DNA of 38,581 nucleotides from an uncultured Erysipelotrichaceae bacterium (GTDB lineage: Bacteria; Bacillota_I; Bacilli_A; Erysipelotrichales; Erysipelotrichaceae): assembly GCA_944327105.1 (NCBI GenBank), contig CALVGN010000041.1, positions 1 through 38,581 on the forward strand. Reading direction: 5' to 3'. The position numbers and the translations under genes are program-made. This document shows positions 28,095 through 37,038 of this stretch, piece by piece (within the stretch, counting starts at the first letter, position 1; every line of letters begins with the position of its first letter). The notes beneath the pieces were generated by a model, which made no database searches, had not been told where the DNA came from, and was given only the letters and a program-made list of their open reading frames with translations.

Positions 28095-30650
28095 ATGAAT
28101 TTAGAACAATGCACATCTTCATTACAACAGGTATTGGAAAAAGGTGCCCAATGGGCGAACACCAATGGAAACCCCAATATCGAACTGGCACATCTGATGA
28201 CGTATTTGGCGGATGATGCGACCATGACGACATTTTGGGAAAAAGCCAATGTCGATCCTTCACAGATCGCCTCGATCTGCAAGCAGGAAGTCGATCGACT
28301 GCCTAAAGCACCCGGCAGTTCCCTGAATTATTCTCGAAATGTCATTGAAGCCTTGAATAAAGCAGAAACCTACATGAAACGCTTCAATGATCAATATTTG
28401 GGCTGTGTTTTATTTGCGATTGCTGCTTTATCGATCGAATCGGACAATGCGATGAATCACCTTAAAGGGCTCGTCCCGGATACGAAAACACTGCTTTCCA
28501 TTGAAAACCAACGGCGCAATGGCATGAATATCCATGATGCCCAGGGAGAAAATCAAATCGATGCATTAAGCAAATATGGCCGAGATCTGGTCGAAGAAGT
28601 CAAAAGTGGGAAAGTCGATCCGGTCATCGGGCGCGATGAAGAAATCCGCAGAGTGATCGAAATCTTATCCCGTAAGACCAAAAACAACCCGGTGCTGATC
28701 GGTGAACCGGGTGTCGGTAAAACCGCCATTGTCGAAGGATTGGCTTGGCGGATCATGAAGGGAGATGTCCCGTTTAACTTAAAACGCAAGCAGCTTATCG
28801 AATTGGATTTGGGATCATTGATCGCCGGTGCCAAATATCGCGGTGAATTCGAGGAACGGCTCAAAGGGGTGTTGAAACAAGTCGATGCATCCAATGGGAA
28901 TATCATTTTGTTCATCGATGAGATCCATAATCTGATCGGGGCTGGTAAAACCGATGGCGCAATGGATGCCGCCAACTTGCTCAAACCCATGCTGGCGCGA
29001 GGCCAATTGCATTGCATTGGTGCCACCACGTTCAACGAATACATGCAATACATCGAAAAAGATGCGGCATTGGAACGTCGCTTCCAGAAAGTCATGGTCG
29101 AAGAGCCTAGTGTGGAAGATACCATTTCCATTTTGCGAGGACTGAAAGATCGCTTCGAATCGTTCCATGGCGTGCATATCAAAGATGACGCCTTGGTCGC
29201 TGCAGCCACATTAAGCGATCGGTATATCAATGACCGTTATCTGCCGGATAAAGCTATCGATTGTGTCGATGAAGCCTGTGCATCCATCCGTGTGCAACTG
29301 GATTCCATGCCGGTCAGCTTGGATGAACTCAATCGAGAGATCATGCAGCTGCAGATCGAAGAAACTGCACTGAAAAAAGAAGATGATGACAAGAGTGCGC
29401 AGCGTTTAAGTGAGATCCAGCAGAAACTGGCTTCTTTGAAAGAACAGCAGATCGCCCAGATGGATCAATGGAAAAAGGAAAAAGATCATGTTGAACATAT
29501 CAAAAAGCTCAAACATGATCTCGATCAGGCCAATCTGGATTATACCCAGGCCACCAATGCAGCGGATTATGAAAAGGCAGCACGGATCCAGTATTCGATC
29601 ATTCCGCAATTGAAATCTCAGATCGACAGTGAATCCAAAGCTTCCGGTGAAAGCAAGCTGCTCAAGGAAGATGTCGATGCAGAGTTGATCGCCGGTGTGA
29701 TCAGCCGCTGGACCCATATCGAAATCAGCAAGCTGATGGCAAGCGATCGGGAAAAATTGCTGCATTTATCGGATGCGTTAAAGGAAAGGGTCAAAGGCCA
29801 GGATCATGCCGTTGAATTGGTATCGGACGTGATTTTGCGCAGCAAAGCCGGGATCCAGGATGACAATCGGCCATTGGGCAGTTTCCTATTTCTGGGTCCT
29901 ACCGGAGTCGGTAAGACCGAAGTTGCCAAAGCGTTGGCCGAGCAGCTGTTCGATGATGAAAATGCTATGGTGCGTATCGATATGAGCGAGTATATGGAAA
30001 AACATTCCGTCTCTCGTTTGATCGGTGCCCCTCCGGGATACGTCGGCTATGAGCAAGGTGGTCAGCTGACCGAAGCCGTGCGGCGTCATCCGTACAGTAT
30101 CGTATTGCTCGATGAAGTTGAAAAAGCTCATCCCGATGTGTTCAACGTATTGCTTCAGGTGCTTGATGATGGGCGGATCACGGATGGCAAAGGTGTAACG
30201 GTCAACTTTGCCAATACGATCATCATTATGACCAGTAACCTTGGTAGTGAATATGCGTTTGAAAGTGATCCAACCACGCGAGAAGCGCATTATCGCAATG
30301 CGGTACAGAATTATTTCCGTCCTGAGTTTGTCAATCGAATCGATGAGATCGTCGTATTCAATGCGTTAAATGAAACAGTATGCGCTCAAATTGCCGTCAA
30401 ATTCCTGCAGCAGTTGGCCTATCGGATGGCGCGTGCGGATGTGAAACTGGATTGGGACAAAGATGTGACCACGATGATCGGTGCGTGTGGTCAGGATGCC
30501 GTATTTGGGGCACGACCAATGAAACGGTACATCCAGGATCATATCGAAACGCCGATTGCTAAAATGATGATTGCATCGGATTGCAGTGGTCATACCATTA
30601 CCATCCATGTCAATGGCGAGGATGATTATGGTTTTACCATCGATGATTAA
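28095..30650 (+). CDS. clpB: disaggregase ClpB (Hsp100)
   Basis: ClpB rescues aggregated proteins with DnaK-DnaJ-GrpE. The 851 residues have the N-terminal double Clp repeat (1-145), AAA+ domain 1 with Walker A GEPGVGKTAI near residue 202 and Walker B ILFIDEIHNLIGAG, the coiled-coil middle domain (about 390-520) that distinguishes ClpB from ClpA/ClpC, AAA+ domain 2 with GPTGVGKTEVAKALAEQL near 600, VLLDEVEKAHPDVFNVLLQV, and a C-terminal domain. An AAAGGAG site precedes ATG 28095. The perfect CIRCE upstream and the neighbouring hrcA operon put the whole disaggregation machine under one repressor. It ends in a strong terminator. Confidence 0.97.
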   Translation: MNLEQCTSSLQQVLEKGAQWANTNGNPNIELAHLMTYLADDATMTTFWEKANVDPSQIASICKQEVDRLPKAPGSSLNYSRNVIEALNKAETYMKRFNDQYLGCVLFAIAALSIESDNAMNHLKGLVPDTKTLLSIENQRRNGMNIHDAQGENQIDALSKYGRDLVEEVKSGKVDPVIGRDEEIRRVIEILSRKTKNNPVLIGEPGVGKTAIVEGLAWRIMKGDVPFNLKRKQLIELDLGSLIAGAKYRGEFEERLKGVLKQVDASNGNIILFIDEIHNLIGAGKTDGAMDAANLLKPMLARGQLHCIGATTFNEYMQYIEKDAALERRFQKVMVEEPSVEDTISILRGLKDRFESFHGVHIKDDALVAAATLSDRYINDRYLPDKAIDCVDEACASIRVQLDSMPVSLDELNREIMQLQIEETALKKEDDDKSAQRLSEIQQKLASLKEQQIAQMDQWKKEKDHVEHIKKLKHDLDQANLDYTQATNAADYEKAARIQYSIIPQLKSQIDSESKASGESKLLKEDVDAELIAGVISRWTHIEISKLMASDREKLLHLSDALKERVKGQDHAVELVSDVILRSKAGIQDDNRPLGSFLFLGPTGVGKTEVAKALAEQLFDDENAMVRIDMSEYMEKHSVSRLIGAPPGYVGYEQGGQLTEAVRRHPYSIVLLDEVEKAHPDVFNVLLQVLDDGRITDGKGVTVNFANTIIIMTSNLGSEYAFESDPTTREAHYRNAVQNYFRPEFVNRIDEIVVFNALNETVCAQIAVKFLQQLAYRMARADVKLDWDKDVTTMIGACGQDAVFGARPMKRYIQDHIETPIAKMMIASDCSGHTITIHVNGEDDYGFTIDD

Positions 30651-31838: not shown

Positions 31839-33227
31839 ATGCGTAGTCGACGAATTCAAATCATGCGAAAACTCGGTACGACACGTTTGGTCGTACTCAG
31901 TTTCGTTTTTGTGGTATTTACCGGAGCCTGTATGCTCGCTTTACCATGGTCCAACCAAGTTGATGGCGTACGATTCATCGATCATCTGTTCGTGGCCACC
32001 TCCGCAACCTGTGTGACCGGCTTGGTCCCCTATGCCATCGTGGACCACTACACCTTGTTTGGTCAATGTGTGATCATCTGGCTGATGCAGGTCGGTGGAC
32101 TTGGATTGATGACATTGATCGTATTTTTCATGACCATGATGAAGGAGCGATTGTTTCAGGGAGAAAAGAAACTGATGCACGACTCCCTCAATACCCGCTC
32201 ATTGCGTGAGATTCCGAAATATGTCCGTCGGATTTTCAAATATACGTTTATTTTTGAAGGATGTGGGGCATTGCTGTTGATGATCGATTTCATTCCGCGT
32301 TTTGGAGTCCCTCAAGGTATATTCAATAGTATTTTTACGGCAGTCAGTGCTTTCTGTAACGCTGGTTTGGATAATTTTGCGCCCACATCATTGATTGGTT
32401 TTGTCACCAATCCGTTGATCAACATCGTGATCGCCGCATTGATCATCATGGGTGGATTGGGATTCAGCGTCTGGTTTGATTTATGTGATCATTTCTTTGC
32501 CTGTGCCCGTCAGGGCTTTCGTGGCATCAAGCAGATGGTACGAAAACTGTCGATCCATACCAAGATCGTCATTATTGCGACCACCATTTTGATCGTTGGT
32601 GGCACGATCCTTTTCTATATCATTGAATTTGATAACCCAGCCACATTGGGACAATTGAACCCATTTGAAAAAATCTATCCGGCATTCTTTACTTCCGTGA
32701 CATTGCGTACTGCCGGTTTCAGTACCATCGATATGGCATCGACCCATCCATTATCCCAATTGTTGATGTGTCTGTGGATGCTGATCGGTGGCTCACCCGG
32801 CGGTACAGCGGGTGGTATCAAGACCACCAGTGCCGTGGTATTGATTCTGACCATGATCGGTTTGATGCATGATGAAGATGCCGATGTGAACTTGTTTCGT
32901 CGTCGCATTTCCAGAAAAACATTTTTACATGCATTCATGATCCTGGCGTATTATGTGATGTTTCTATTTGTTGGTGTGGCCATCATGCTAGTCAGTGAAC
33001 CATCGTTATCATTGATGGAGATCGTATATGAATGCATCTCGGCGATCGCTACGGTTGGATTGAGTTTGAACGTCTCACCGGGATTAAGTGATGTCGGCAA
33101 GATCGTGATCATCGCGTTGATGTTATTTGGACGTTGTGGTCCGATCACCATCATGTGCAGCATGTTTACCACGAACGGGAAACGAACGGAACGTCATTTC
33201 CCGCAAGCGGACGTATTGATCGGTTGA
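31839..33227 (+). CDS. ktrB: K+ uptake channel subunit, KtrB/TrkH family
   Basis: This is the ion-conducting membrane subunit of a Ktr/Trk potassium uptake system. The 462 residues form four M1-P-M2 repeats whose selectivity loops are visible: ATSATCVTGLVP, VSAFCNAGLDNF, TLRTAGFSTIDM and SAIATVGLSLNV, each with its conserved Gly. The PGGTAGGIKTTSAV motif near residue 325 is diagnostic. The ATG at 31839 has only a weak site (GAGAATGAAGTAGAAG), and an in-frame ATG at 31863 is an alternative. The length is typical of KtrB. The regulatory partner ktrA follows 28 bases later, so the pair is complete. Confidence 0.95.
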   Translation: MRSRRIQIMRKLGTTRLVVLSFVFVVFTGACMLALPWSNQVDGVRFIDHLFVATSATCVTGLVPYAIVDHYTLFGQCVIIWLMQVGGLGLMTLIVFFMTMMKERLFQGEKKLMHDSLNTRSLREIPKYVRRIFKYTFIFEGCGALLLMIDFIPRFGVPQGIFNSIFTAVSAFCNAGLDNFAPTSLIGFVTNPLINIVIAALIIMGGLGFSVWFDLCDHFFACARQGFRGIKQMVRKLSIHTKIVIIATTILIVGGTILFYIIEFDNPATLGQLNPFEKIYPAFFTSVTLRTAGFSTIDMASTHPLSQLLMCLWMLIGGSPGGTAGGIKTTSAVVLILTMIGLMHDEDADVNLFRRRISRKTFLHAFMILAYYVMFLFVGVAIMLVSEPSLSLMEIVYECISAIATVGLSLNVSPGLSDVGKIVIIALMLFGRCGPITIMCSMFTTNGKRTERHFPQADVLIG

Positions 33228-33255
33228 TAGTATTCAACCAAAGAAAGGAAATCTT

Positions 33256-33915
33256 ATGAAACGCGAAAAATTCTGTATTCTTGGTTTAGGCATCTTTGGT
33301 TCGACCATTGCCACCCATTTATCTCAAAGAGGTTGCGATGTCATCGCTGTGGACATGGATGGTTCCTGTGTGGAACGATTGGCGGACATCTGCGAAGCCG
33401 TACAGGCTGATTTTACCGATTTGAGTCAATTGCAGGACTTAGGTATCGAAGATGTGGATTGTGCGGTGGTCGCCACCGGCAGTCATCTGGAACAGTCCAT
33501 CCTCGGTGTGTTGAATTTAAAGGAACTCGGTGTCCCATATATCATTGCCAAGGCTAAAAACCGCAAATATGCGACGGTATTGACCAAATTAGGGGTGGAT
33601 CGAGTCATCCAGCCGGAAAAGGAAAGTGGAAAACGGATCGCCAAATTACTGTCCAGTTCCAATCTGGCCGATATCGTTGAATTAGATCCCAATACATTGC
33701 TGGCTGAACTCGTCGCACCTGCCAGCTGGATCGGCAAATCCATCATCGAACTGGATCTGCGCAATCGCTATGGCGTCAACATCATCGGCATCAAAAAAGG
33801 AGTAGAAGGCCGCCTGTCCATTCTGCTGGATGCGACTACCGTGATCGAAAAGGGCGATAATATCGTCTTTATCGGTACAAACGAAGCTGTTGAACGGCTG
33901 AACAACATTGACTGA
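33256..33915 (+). CDS. ktrA: K+ uptake regulatory subunit, KtrA/TrkA family
   Basis: A peripheral RCK protein that gates KtrB through nucleotide binding. The 219 residues have the Rossmann RCK_N domain (FCILGLGIFGSTIATHLSQR, acidic Asp at the end of beta 2 in VIAVDMD) and the RCK_C domain from about residue 135 (LAELVAPASWIGKSIIELDL, VIEKGDNIVFIGTNEAVERL). RCK_C domains of this type often bind c-di-AMP, but no riboswitch for it was seen upstream. GAAAGGAA precedes ATG 33256. The stop codon is followed by a region with paired ACATTG/CAATGT repeats. Confidence 0.95.
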   Translation: MKREKFCILGLGIFGSTIATHLSQRGCDVIAVDMDGSCVERLADICEAVQADFTDLSQLQDLGIEDVDCAVVATGSHLEQSILGVLNLKELGVPYIIAKAKNRKYATVLTKLGVDRVIQPEKESGKRIAKLLSSSNLADIVELDPNTLLAELVAPASWIGKSIIELDLRNRYGVNIIGIKKGVEGRLSILLDATTVIEKGDNIVFIGTNEAVERLNNID

Positions 33916-33997
33916 TTTTATTCAATGTAAACTCTTACATTTTCTTTCATCATTTTCATGACAACATTGCTTCCCAATGTTAAATTCACGTTATAAT
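33905..33997 (+). promoter_or_regulatory. candidate operator/promoter region of the ankyrin-EF-G operon
   Basis: Two inverted repeats share the half-site ACATTG/CAATGT: ACATTGA (33905-33911) with TCAATGT (33922-33928), and AACATTG (33963-33969) with CAATGTT (33975-33981). A perfect TATAAT (33992-33997) follows. The second repeat covers the weak -35 (TTGCTT). The first overlaps the last codons of ktrA. Confidence 0.5.
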
Positions 33998-34036
33998 GAA
34001 GGCATCAAAAACGTGATACAAAGGAGGAACAACATC

Positions 34037-34705
34037 ATGAATTTGGATGAGAAGATGTTCTGGGACGGTGCCGCACATGGCGAATTGGATACCGTCCAGG
34101 CTGCTGTCAAAAAAGGCGTCGACGTCAACATGACCAATGCGGAAGGTCGCAGCGCGCTTATGCGTACGGCCAAACGCGGTCATCAGGATGTCGTACGCTT
34201 TTTAATTACTAGCGGAGCCAACGTCAATGCCGTAGATAAAAACGGCAAGACCGCATTGATGGGTGCGGCCAAAAAAGGAGAATTGGAAATCTGTCGCATG
34301 CTGCTGGATGCCGGTGCGAACGTCAATGCCCGTGACAACAACGGTCGTACAGCTTTGCTGCGTGCTGCATTTTTAGGCCACGTCAAAGTCGTGGAATTTC
34401 TCATCGAACGCGGTGGTGATGTCAATTGTGCCGATTCACTTGGCCGTACTTGCCTGATGGAGGCTGTGACCACCGTGCGCAAAGATATGGTCGATGTGCT
34501 GATGGCCCATGGTGCCAACATCAATGCCAAAGATTGCCGCGGCTGCACCGCATTGATGCGTGCCGCATATGCGGGTGACCCGGATATGGTCAAGTATCTG
34601 GTCGAAATGGGGGCAGATAAGACCATTGCCGATAATAACGGTGTCACGGCGATCCATTATGCCCGCAGTGAATGTGTGGATCAGTTGAAAGGATGGTTGG
34701 CTTAA
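34037..34705 (+). CDS. ankyrin-repeat protein
   Basis: The start is placed at ATG 34037, nine bases after AAGGAGG (34021-34027); the longer open frame from 33977 has no site. The 222 residues consist almost entirely of six to seven 33-residue ankyrin repeats, each with the pattern GRTALMRAA.GHxxVVxFLIxxGANVNAxDxN (for example KNGKTALMGAAKKGELEICR and NNGRTALLRAAFLGHVKVVE). There is no signal peptide or membrane segment, so it is likely a cytoplasmic binding protein; the partner is unknown. It precedes and overlaps (TAATG) an EF-G-like GTPase, so the two are translationally coupled. Confidence 0.93.
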   Translation: MNLDEKMFWDGAAHGELDTVQAAVKKGVDVNMTNAEGRSALMRTAKRGHQDVVRFLITSGANVNAVDKNGKTALMGAAKKGELEICRMLLDAGANVNARDNNGRTALLRAAFLGHVKVVEFLIERGGDVNCADSLGRTCLMEAVTTVRKDMVDVLMAHGANINAKDCRGCTALMRAAYAGDPDMVKYLVEMGADKTIADNNGVTAIHYARSECVDQLKGWLA

Positions 34706-36768
34706 TGAAAGACTATCATGCAAAAGATATCCGCAATGTCACATTGCTTGGCCACAATGGCGCCGGCAAGACCAGTCTGATCGAATCCATTCTTGCCTAT
34801 ACCCAAACCATTCCATCGATGGGTTCCGTTGCCAAAGGCAATACGGTATGCGATTTTGATACCGATTGCATCGAACGGCAAACCAGCTGCTACTGTTGCC
34901 TGGCACCAGTGGAATGGAAAGGCGTCAAGATCAATTTCATCGACACGCCGGGATATCTGGATTATGCCGCAGATCGTATGGCCGGGTTAAGCGTGGGGGA
35001 TAACGTATTGGTCGTGGTCGATGGCAAAGCGGGGATCCAAAGCGGAACCGAGCGAGCCGTTCGAGATGCGCGCAAACGCGGTTTGCCGACGATCTTCTTT
35101 ATCAACAAAATGGATGATCCCACAGCCAGTTTTGATAAAACATATGCTGCATTGCACGAAACATTCGGAAAAAGCGTGATCCCGTTTGAAATGCCGATCA
35201 TCAATGATCATAAAGTGGTCGGTTCTGTCAATATTCTGCGACGCAAAGCCTGGTATTACGATGATGCCGAAAATGCAAAGGAAGTGCCGGCAGATATGGC
35301 GGATACGGTCGAAGAATATTACAACCAGATCGCCGAAGCGATCGCGATGAGCGATGATGTGCTGATGGAAAAATTCTTCTCCGGTGAAGAATTCAGTGAT
35401 GAAGAACTGGTCCAGGGACTTTCCTTTGGTGTGGCCAATGGTGAGATCGAGCCGGTATTCAGTGGCAGTGCGCTGCAGCAAACCGGAATCTACCGCTTGT
35501 TGGATCTTTTGCGTGAATACTTCCCGGCTTATGAAGAGTTGGGCAGCATCGAAGCATTAGATGATCATGATCAACCAGTGGCATTGAAAACCAGTGAAGA
35601 CGAGATTGTTACAGCACAGATTTTCAAAACCATCATCGACCCGTATGTCGGTCGCATCAGTTATCTGAAAGTCAAAACCGGTGTGTTGGCCAGCGGCAGC
35701 GTCGTTTACAATCCTTTGACCGATACGGAAGAGCCGATCATGCAGGTGTATGCATTACGCGGCAAAGTCCAGATGGCGGTTGGCAAACTGTTTACCGGTG
35801 ATATCGGTGTCGTGGTCAAATTAAACAATACATTTACCAATGACACTCTGTGTGCCAAAGGTAGCAGTGTCCATTATCCACCGGTGGAGTTCCCCAAACC
35901 GATGTTGGCCAAGGCCATTGCACCGAAAACCAAAAGTGATGAAGACAAGATGAGTACCGCATTGAACCGGATGGTTCAGGAAGACATGAGTCTGAAAGTG
36001 GTGCTCAATAAAGAAACCGGACAGCAGTTGCTGTATGGTGTGGGTGAACAGCATATCGATCTGATCTTGAAAAAGCTCAAAAGCAAATTCAAGGTGGAAG
36101 TCACGACCAGCGACCCATTGACGCAATACCGCGAAACGATCACCAAAACCGTCACGGCGCAAGGCAAACATAAAAAACAGACGGGTGGCGCCGGACAGTA
36201 TGGAGATGTCGTGGTGACATTTGAACCATGGGATTGCGAAGACATGGTATTTGAAGAAAAAGTATTCGGTGGTGCCGTTCCAAAACAATACTTCCCAGCT
36301 GTCGAAGCCGGATTGCGTGAGTGCATGAACAAGGGTGTATTGGCTGGATACAAAGTAGTGGGAGTCAAAGCCACATTGATCGATGGTTCTTACCATGAAG
36401 TCGATTCCAAGGACATCGCATTCAAAGCGGCAGCCCGGCTTGCGTATAACAATGCCATGCCGCAAGCCAATCCGATTTTGCTTGAACCGATCGGAAATGT
36501 TGAAGTCCAGGTTCCGGAAAGTTATACCGGAGACATCATTGCCGATTTGAATAAAAAACGCGGCATGATCGTCGATATGGGAACCAATACGGACGGCTTG
36601 ACCGTGATCCATGCTCAAGTTCCAATGGCAGAAATGAACAATTATGCCATCGAATTACGCTCGATCGCTCAAGGTCGTGGGGATTATACGATCGAATTCG
36701 ATCGTTATGAACCGGTACCGGCATTCTTGCAGGAAAAATTGGTCGAAAAAGTCAAACGCAACGATTGA
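34705..36768 (+). CDS. EF-G-like translational GTPase (EF-G2 subfamily)
   Basis: The start is ATG 34705 (MKDYHAKDIRNVTLLGHNGA), overlapping the ankyrin stop by one base; the frame is open upstream within the ankyrin gene but has no site. The 687 residues have the EF-G five-domain layout. The P-loop is GHNGAGKTS (from residue 16), the switch II motif is DTPGYLDY near 79-86, and NKMD lies near 133. Domains IV-V follow (GGAGQYGDVVVTFEPW, LLEPIGNVEVQVPESY). The canonical EF-G has DTPGHVDF; here the His that positions the attacking water is Tyr, as in the EF-G2-like branch, so it is not the main translocase. Its role is unknown; ribosome binding without classical translocation is likely. Confidence 0.9.
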   Translation: MKDYHAKDIRNVTLLGHNGAGKTSLIESILAYTQTIPSMGSVAKGNTVCDFDTDCIERQTSCYCCLAPVEWKGVKINFIDTPGYLDYAADRMAGLSVGDNVLVVVDGKAGIQSGTERAVRDARKRGLPTIFFINKMDDPTASFDKTYAALHETFGKSVIPFEMPIINDHKVVGSVNILRRKAWYYDDAENAKEVPADMADTVEEYYNQIAEAIAMSDDVLMEKFFSGEEFSDEELVQGLSFGVANGEIEPVFSGSALQQTGIYRLLDLLREYFPAYEELGSIEALDDHDQPVALKTSEDEIVTAQIFKTIIDPYVGRISYLKVKTGVLASGSVVYNPLTDTEEPIMQVYALRGKVQMAVGKLFTGDIGVVVKLNNTFTNDTLCAKGSSVHYPPVEFPKPMLAKAIAPKTKSDEDKMSTALNRMVQEDMSLKVVLNKETGQQLLYGVGEQHIDLILKKLKSKFKVEVTTSDPLTQYRETITKTVTAQGKHKKQTGGAGQYGDVVVTFEPWDCEDMVFEEKVFGGAVPKQYFPAVEAGLRECMNKGVLAGYKVVGVKATLIDGSYHEVDSKDIAFKAAARLAYNNAMPQANPILLEPIGNVEVQVPESYTGDIIADLNKKRGMIVDMGTNTDGLTVIHAQVPMAEMNNYAIELRSIAQGRGDYTIEFDRYEPVPAFLQEKLVEKVKRND

Positions 36769-36787
36769 TCCTTGTGTATTCGACAAG

Positions 36788-36815
36788 CAAAGCGGGGTGG
36801 AACCATCCCGCTTTG
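36788..36815 (+). terminator. hairpin terminator after the EF-G-like gene
   Basis: CAAAGCGGGGTGG and CCATCCCGCTTTG around AA, with one G-T pair. The T tail is short. Confidence 0.65.
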
Positions 36816-36885
36816 TTCACGATTTTTATTGCATTTGCATCGTGAATTGCGTATGATTTATGGGCATTGAAATTGGAGGTGGATT

Positions 36886-37038
36886 ATGCCTAGAGATAAT
36901 ATCACGTTGAAGTGCTCGGTTTGCGGTGAAGAAAATTACATTTCCACCCGCAACAAGAAAAAGCATACCGAAAAGCTGGAAACCCAGAAATATTGCCCGG
37001 TGTGCCGCAAGAAAACGTTGCATAAAGAAAAGAAATAA
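36886..37038 (+). CDS. rpmG: 50S ribosomal protein L33
   Basis: A 50-residue basic protein, [20 protein letters not shown] then [20 protein letters not shown], of the zinc-binding (CxxC...CxxC) L33 type. GGAGGT lies just before ATG 36886. It is often found upstream of secE-nusG; here it is alone and ends in its own terminator. It is small enough to be missed by an ORF length cutoff. Confidence 0.95.

What the first reader, a model, noticed from the sequence alone, without database searches (positions are those of the whole stretch)
34037..36768. Coupled ankyrin-repeat protein and EF-G-like GTPase lacking the switch II histidine
A bacterial cytoplasmic ankyrin protein overlaps by one base a translation-type GTPase with DTPGYLDY in place of DTPGHVDF. 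The His to Tyr change is known for the EF-G2 branch and predicts altered GTP hydrolysis. Coupling suggests the ankyrin protein may be a partner or regulator of the GTPase, a pairing I do not know to be described.
Basis: partly seen in the sequence, partly recalled or inferred. Interest (0 to 1): 0.55.

Follow-up and report, generated by a model that had tools for sequence, protein, structure and literature searches.

The report
Ankyrin protein paired with alternative EF-G
In one family of gut-type bacteria a small ankyrin-repeat protein gene sits almost without exception directly in front of the gene for a second, unusual copy of the translation factor EF-G, which points to a so far undescribed partner of an alternative protein-synthesis factor.

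Summary
A 222-residue ankyrin-repeat protein (34037-34705) overlaps by one base a 687-residue EF-G paralogue (34705-36768) with DTPGYLDY for DTPGHVDF. The paralogue belongs to the EFG II subfamily (12 of 13 published positions met); a canonical EF-G sits elsewhere, in the str operon. The pairing is not local: of 115 genomes of the window's family, 107 carry either gene; in 105 the pair is adjacent, in 2 a contig end hides the answer. In a named collection 79 of 80 ankyrin orthologues lie directly before EF-G2; the other is cut by a contig end. The sister family has EF-G2 without the ankyrin gene. Eight family genomes keep canonical EF-G but lack both genes (three closed, one genus). The ankyrin target-binding face is nearly invariant and basic while the back varies, and the two proteins' rates covary beyond canonical EF-G. 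So the ankyrin protein is very probably a dedicated functional partner of EF-G2. Direct binding is likely but not shown: two fused AlphaFold models gave no confident docking. The one-base overlap itself is not conserved. My literature searches found no description of the pair.

The parts
34016..34036 (+). ribosome-binding site region (AAAGGAGG) of the ankyrin gene; a TATAAT hexamer lies further upstream at 33992-33997
   Evidence: sequence read; the scan tool's promoter model did not list the TATAAT site
34037..34705 (+). ankyrin-repeat protein, 222 aa (N-cap, five 33-residue repeats from residue 35, C-terminal cap), no other domain
   Evidence: orthologues next to EF-G2 in 105 of 107 family genomes that hold either gene
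34705..36768 (+). EF-G paralogue of the EFG II subfamily (EF-G2), 687 aa, switch II DTPGYLDY
34703..34707 (+). TAATG stop/start overlap of one base between the two genes
36786..36817 (+). strong hairpin after EF-G2, probable intrinsic terminator closing the unit
   Evidence: 14-pair stem; -24.4 kcal/mol, z -4.15, 0 of 200 shuffles as stable

Best explanation
The two genes form a minimal conserved unit of the family Erysipelotrichaceae. The second gene makes an EFG II-type alternative elongation factor G that has lost the switch II histidine and so probably hydrolyses GTP slowly or not at all on the ribosome. The first gene makes a dedicated partner: an ankyrin solenoid whose basic, nearly invariant finger and concave face most likely binds EF-G2 (an acidic protein) or the EF-G2/ribosome assembly, and controls when EF-G2 is held, delivered to, or taken off ribosomes, probably under nutrient limitation. 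Shown: the unit, its conservation, its joint inheritance and apparent joint loss, the EFG II membership, the conserved binding face. Inferred: direct contact, the control function, the condition.
For: Adjacency in 105 of 107 family genomes that hold either gene, the 2 others cut by contig ends; 79 of 80 in a named collection. The wider surroundings vary while the pair stays: the commonest other neighbour, a YgjP-like gene, is found in 50 of the 79 loci and is not beside the pair in the window. Joint absence: 8 genomes with canonical EF-G and neither gene, 3 of them single-contig, while other members of the same genus g58 have both. Ankyrin positions 5, 10, 13, 14 of five repeats: mean entropy 0.43 bits against 2.05 for the back, p 8e-8; R38, R47, R109, R137, R175 invariant in 128 sequences. 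Rates covary: partial r 0.61 given canonical EF-G, Mantel p 0.0002, 16 genomes. EF-G2 is one clade (support 99), sister to the ankyrin-less EF-G2 of the sister family. Median pI: EF-G2 5.1, ankyrin 6.2. Related EF-G2s are solved on ribosomes (8dmf, 9k0z; titles).
Against: No docking in two fused AlphaFold models (pTM 0.67 and 0.68, linker pLDDT under 50); covariation by mutual information was dominated by lineage signal and named no interface. The sister family has EF-G2 without the ankyrin gene (20 of 20 loci read), so the partner is not needed for every EFG II. The conserved face could bind something other than EF-G2. The positions 5, 10, 13, 14 were chosen after seeing the alignment; with the six classical DARPin positions the contrast is smaller (1.20 against 2.05 bits, p 0.0009). 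Joint absence of adjacent genes is partly expected from assembly gaps, and the closed cases are all in one genus.
Confidence: 0.6

Rival explanations
1. The two proteins work in the same process but do not touch: the ankyrin protein binds another partner (a ribosomal protein, another factor or RNA) and the pair is an operon for co-expression.
For: Docking is not predicted; the most conserved ankyrin positions are basic, which would also suit a ribosomal or RNA partner; operons often join non-contacting proteins (established knowledge).
Against: The tie is to EF-G2 alone while other neighbours change; rates covary with EF-G2 beyond canonical EF-G.
Confidence: 0.25
2. Antidote arrangement: the ankyrin protein mainly neutralises EF-G2, whose unpaired activity would harm elongation by blocking ribosomes.
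For: The possible inhibitor is encoded first and no genome in the family clearly has EF-G2 alone; the EF-G2 without the ankyrin gene in the sister family has lost the G4 lysine in 20 of 20.
Against: Class EFG II proteins keep the G4 lysine in 17 of 17 and no ankyrin orthologue was found in their genomes, so unpaired EFG II is tolerated elsewhere.
Confidence: 0.1
3. Neutral inheritance: the ankyrin gene was inserted once in front of EF-G2 in the family's ancestor and persists by translational coupling or chance, without a functional tie.
For: A single origin fits the tree and vertical inheritance would keep gene order for some time; short gaps in all pairs.
Against: Ankyrin orthologues fall to 44-59% identity and the surroundings are reshuffled, yet the pair stays; the binding face is under strong purifying selection; no free-standing ankyrin orthologue in 115 genomes.
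Confidence: 0.05

Closest known systems
EFG II subfamily of elongation factor G (Margus et al. 2011, PMC3150367), including Thermus thermophilus EF-G-2 (1WDT)
   Same: All 6 type I and 6 of 7 type II positions; relaxed G2 motif with Ser; canonical EF-G present besides; domain IV conserved more than the rest
   Different: Tyr for switch II His in 124 of 125, and an ankyrin partner gene; the paper's text does not contain the word ankyrin
Bacteroides EF-G2 (FusA2; NF058620, structure 8dmf)
   Same: Second EF-G with altered G domain; induced in carbon limitation and needed for gut colonisation there (PMC6989115, passages read); lack of GTPase activity is the title of Han et al. 2023, seen only as a citation
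   Different: 550 bits against a family cut-off of 1000; no ankyrin gene known to me there (recalled, not tested)
FusB, which binds EF-G on the ribosome (9ghc, listed)
   Same: Idea only: a small protein partner that acts on an EF-G
   Different: The fold differs: this is a protein of ankyrin repeats alone, FusB is a zinc-binding two-domain protein (recalled)
Tetracycline ribosomal protection proteins
   Same: EF-G-like proteins acting on the ribosome
   Different: 288.8 bits against a cut-off of 775

Membership tests
EFG II subfamily | Type I positions Gly16, Leu25, Ser61, Thr291, Gly333, Lys352 (1WDT numbering) | tested here: met
   6 of 6 in the window protein (positions mapped by hand through the alignment). 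In the family as a whole position 25 is Val in 79 of 125.
EFG II subfamily | Type II positions Asp216, Val250, Leu264, Lys471, Lys472, Glu513, Gly603 | tested here: inconclusive
   6 of 7; the position of Gly603 is Asp624 in the window; the paper's own figures are 84-96%, not 100%
EFG II subfamily | Canonical EFG I present in the str operon; this copy elsewhere | tested here: met
   Canonical EF-G at G000:C39:31827-33878 behind S12- and S7-like ORFs; EF-G2 on C41
EFG II subfamily | Groups with other EFG II in a tree | tested here: met
   One clade of 55 EFG II rows against 4 canonical, support 100
NCBIfam NF009381 (PRK12740.1-5) | Curated score cut-off 583 bits | tested here: met
   839.8 bits
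Bacteroides EF-G2 (NF058620) | Curated score cut-off 1000 bits | tested here: not met
   550.1 bits
Translational GTPase with normal hydrolysis | His in switch II (DTPGH) | tested here: not met
   Tyr84
Translational GTPase with normal hydrolysis | Ribosome-stimulated GTP hydrolysis | not testable with these tools
   needs a biochemical assay
Ankyrin repeat proteins | Pfam Ank gathering scores | tested here: met
   PF00023 156.4 bits (cut-off 21.1), PF12796 156.0 (27.3)
Type IV secretion ankyrin effectors (AnkY, AnkH and others) | Curated cut-offs 450-1400 bits | tested here: not met
   at most 107.3 bits, generic repeat similarity
Dedicated binding partner of EF-G2 | Physical complex | tested here: inconclusive
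   fused AlphaFold models pTM 0.67 and 0.68; mutual information uninformative

The most novel reading that the evidence does not exclude
The ankyrin protein replaces the missing chemistry: because this EF-G lacks the catalytic histidine and cannot leave the ribosome by hydrolysing GTP, the ankyrin protein binds it there and releases or recycles it, making translocation by this factor controlled by a protein partner instead of by GTP hydrolysis.
Probability: 0.13. Interest if true: 0.85.

Novelty: new variant of a known kind. Interest (0 to 1): 0.52.

Why it matters
EFG II proteins are widespread and their function is largely open (PMC3150367); the Bacteroides one is needed for gut colonisation (PMC6989115). 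A conserved, dedicated protein partner in a whole family that includes Holdemania, Bulleidia and Solobacterium (names) gives a direct handle: the partner can be deleted, used as bait, or solved with EF-G2 on the ribosome. It also offers a natural comparison, a sister family with EF-G2 but no partner and a damaged G4 motif.

Tried and rejected
Rejected: pair found only here. Rejected: ankyrin protein as a secretion effector (only generic repeat similarity). Rejected: EF-G2 as a tetracycline protection protein or as Bacteroides-type EF-G2 (below cut-offs). Rejected: genomes G016 and G054 as evidence of joint loss; no EF-G candidate of any kind was found in them, so they are uninformative.

Led nowhere: two AlphaFold runs on read-through fusions of neighbouring ankyrin and EF-G2 frames, first row L029, 61 and 47 rows; mutual information on 118 pairs, about 59 effective; family-specific acidic positions of EF-G2, scattered with a surplus in the G and G' region but no clear patch; the second structure search, meant to show the switch II of 1WDT, did not print that alignment, so Tyr in Thermus EF-G-2 is not claimed from a call. 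The promoter scan was no better than shuffled sequence (5 found, 5.3 expected). Literature: searches gave no paper on an ankyrin/EF-G pair; Han et al. 2023 was not held.

Dropped or set aside before counts: in the class sample 3 of 20 fetched loci (L089, L092, L093) proved canonical EF-G and were moved to the canonical group; of 25 in-frame loci, 19 went into the first AlphaFold alignment and 24 into the second; of 27 in-frame named loci, 23 went into the second. In one search named loci with a best match spanning less than 500 residues were skipped. The tree used 28 of 125 family EF-G2s, 10 of 20 of the sister family, all 17 class EFG II and 4 canonical. The rate test used the 16 genomes for which all three genes were at hand. 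One search was cut in display; the absence of ankyrin hits for all 20 sister-family loci rests.

Full report
What is there. The window holds an ankyrin-repeat gene at 34037-34705 (222 residues) and, overlapping its stop codon by one base, an EF-G paralogue at 34705-36768 (687 residues). The ankyrin protein is an N-terminal cap, five 33-residue repeats and a C-terminal cap and nothing else. The EF-G paralogue has all five EF-G domains, its best curated model is PRK12740.1-5 (839.8 bits, cut-off 583), and DTPGYLDY stands at residues 80-87 where canonical EF-G has DTPGHVDF. A hairpin follows the gene at 36786-36817 (z -4.15) and a TATAAT lies at 33992-33997 before the ankyrin gene; the promoter scan of the stretch is no better than chance. 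The pair therefore looks like a two-gene transcript, which is inference.

What the GTPase is. The genome has a second, canonical EF-G at C39:31827-33878, 35% identical, behind S12- and S7-like ORFs. Against the published list of EFG II positions (Margus et al. 2011, PMC3150367; passages read), the window protein meets 6 of 6 type I and 6 of 7 type II positions. A tree of 59 rows places 28 family EF-G2s in one clade (support 99), sister to the EF-G2 of the other family of the order (99), inside a clade of all 55 EFG II rows (100) apart from 4 canonical EF-Gs. The switch II histidine is missing from all 162 EFG II proteins read (125 of the family, 20 sister family, 17 class): Tyr in 124 and Phe in 1 of the family; Ser, Ala, Thr, Asn or others elsewhere. 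The G4 lysine is kept in 121 of 125 of the family and 17 of 17 of the class, but in 0 of 20 of the sister family. Domain IV is better conserved (0.71 mean pairwise identity) than domains I, II, III and V (0.55-0.57), a contrast that canonical EF-G of the same 16 genomes does not show (0.74-0.83). This is the published EFG II pattern. That the histidine is catalytic is established knowledge of translational GTPases, recalled here. For other EF-G2s, ribosome-dependent GTPase was seen in Thermus and not in Mycobacterium smegmatis (PMC3832671, passages), so hydrolysis in this one cannot be predicted safely.

Is the pairing conserved? In 115 genomes of the same family, the EF-G2 search and the ankyrin search give 102 genomes with both genes, 2 with EF-G2 only, 3 with the ankyrin gene only and 8 with neither; in 101 of the 102 the genes are adjacent on one strand. 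The exceptions were read: in the 3 ankyrin-only genomes and in the non-adjacent one an EF-G2 start follows the ankyrin gene and runs into the contig end; in the 2 EF-G2-only genomes the contig begins at EF-G2 residue 8 or 19. So 105 of 107 show the pair and 2 cannot tell. In the collection of named genomes 232 stretches encode a relative; of the 80 kept, 79 have EF-G2 beginning from 4 nt inside to 24 nt after the ankyrin stop and one is cut by a contig end. The named ones include Bulleidia extructa, Solobacterium sp., Holdemania filiformis and H. massiliensis, Lactimicrobium massiliense and Anaerorhabdus furcosa; the rest are uncultured Erysipelotrichaceae, Erysipelotrichia or unclassified Bacillota by title. 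That the window's family is Erysipelotrichaceae is inferred from these titles.

Where does it stop? In the order sample (148 genomes: 105 family, 43 sister family) no sister-family genome has the ankyrin gene; 20 sister-family EF-G2 loci read have none beside EF-G2. In the class sample of 296 genomes 25 have a strong ankyrin match, all in the family; 11 others reach at most 83.5 bits. In the phylum sample of 392 genomes 35 family members score 316 bits or more and the 6 outsiders at most 122. So the ankyrin gene most simply joined EF-G2 once, at the base of this family.

Are they lost together? Of the 8 family genomes with neither gene, G016 and G054 are uninformative (no EF-G candidate at all), three (G004, G027, G050) are only 81-87% complete, and G033, G086 and G107 remain. 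The order sample adds G149, G153, G164, G173 and G176, all of genus g58 like G107. All eight have canonical EF-G (33-37% identity to the query), no EF-G2 and no ankyrin orthologue; weak generic ankyrin matches occur in G173 and G176. Three are single-contig. Four other members of g58 have both genes. Adjacent genes can go missing together in gaps, so only the closed g58 genomes are firm.

What the ankyrin protein shows. Over 128 orthologues, repeat positions 5, 10, 13 and 14 (fingertip and concave helix, the face that binds targets in ankyrin proteins; DARPin numbering recalled) have a mean entropy of 0.43 bits, the outer positions 17, 18, 21, 22, 25 and 26 have 2.05 (p 8e-8). These four positions were chosen after seeing the alignment; the six positions randomised in DARPins give 1.20 against 2.05 (p 0.0009). 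The conserved face is basic: R38, R47, R109, R137 and R175 do not vary in 128, and R43, K46, K79 and others hardly do. EF-G2 of the family has a median pI of 5.1. In 16 genomes the ankyrin and EF-G2 distances correlate at 0.86 and, with canonical EF-G distance taken out, at 0.61 (Mantel p 0.0002).

What did not support it. Two AlphaFold models of an ankyrin/EF-G2 read-through fusion (61 and 47 rows) fold both halves well (mean pLDDT 90.1 and 89.5) but leave the linker disordered and give pTM 0.67 and 0.68, which is about what two undocked parts would give (the last clause is my estimate). Mutual information over 118 pairs was dominated by lineage signal. Family-specific acidic positions of EF-G2 are scattered.

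How it most likely works. The safest statement is that the ankyrin protein is a dedicated functional partner of an EFG II factor. The likeliest mechanism is direct binding that holds, delivers or removes EF-G2 at the ribosome, used when canonical translation is cut back. For the condition there is only analogy: Bacteroides EF-G2 rises in carbon limitation while EF-G falls (PMC6989115, passages). Structures of related EF-G2s on ribosomes exist (8dmf, 9k0z) and a small protein acting on EF-G on the ribosome has a precedent in FusB (9ghc) (titles).

Novelty. Searches for ankyrin with EF-G, operon or Erysipelotrichaceae, for ankyrin proteins with translation factors and for EF-G2 paralogues found no report of the pair; Margus 2011 and PMC4342817 contain no 'ankyrin'. 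The library holds open-licence papers only. I rate it a new variant of a known kind: a known EF-G subfamily with an undescribed, family-wide protein partner.

Noticed in passing
L097-L176, upstream of the ankyrin gene: A YgjP-like metallopeptidase gene (PF01863, tested on one member) lies among the three nearest upstream genes on the same strand in 50 of 79 loci; it is not near the pair in the window.
   Followed up: partly
L037-L056 (sister family EF-G2): These EFG II proteins have lost the G4 lysine (0 of 20; NGLD, SGLD and similar) besides the switch II histidine, so GTP binding itself may be altered.
   Followed up: partly
L071-L076 (genus g3): EF-G2 lacks about 20 residues (179-198, window numbering; read in four of the six loci) in the G' region yet keeps the ankyrin partner.
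   Followed up: no
L062-L064: EF-G2 with TRCD/TRVD in place of NKxD (G4), with the ankyrin gene still adjacent.
   Followed up: no
genomes G016 and G054: No EF-G candidate of any kind was found although completeness is given as 98-99%; the data of these entries may be unusual.
   Followed up: no
window 36886-37038: A small ORF resembling ribosomal protein L33 lies just after the EF-G2 terminator (name recalled).
   Followed up: no
window 28095-30650: ClpB-like ATPase scoring below the curated ClpB cut-off (1164 against 1232 bits).
   Followed up: no
window 31839-33915: TrkH-like and short TrkA-like potassium uptake genes directly upstream of the pair.
   Followed up: no
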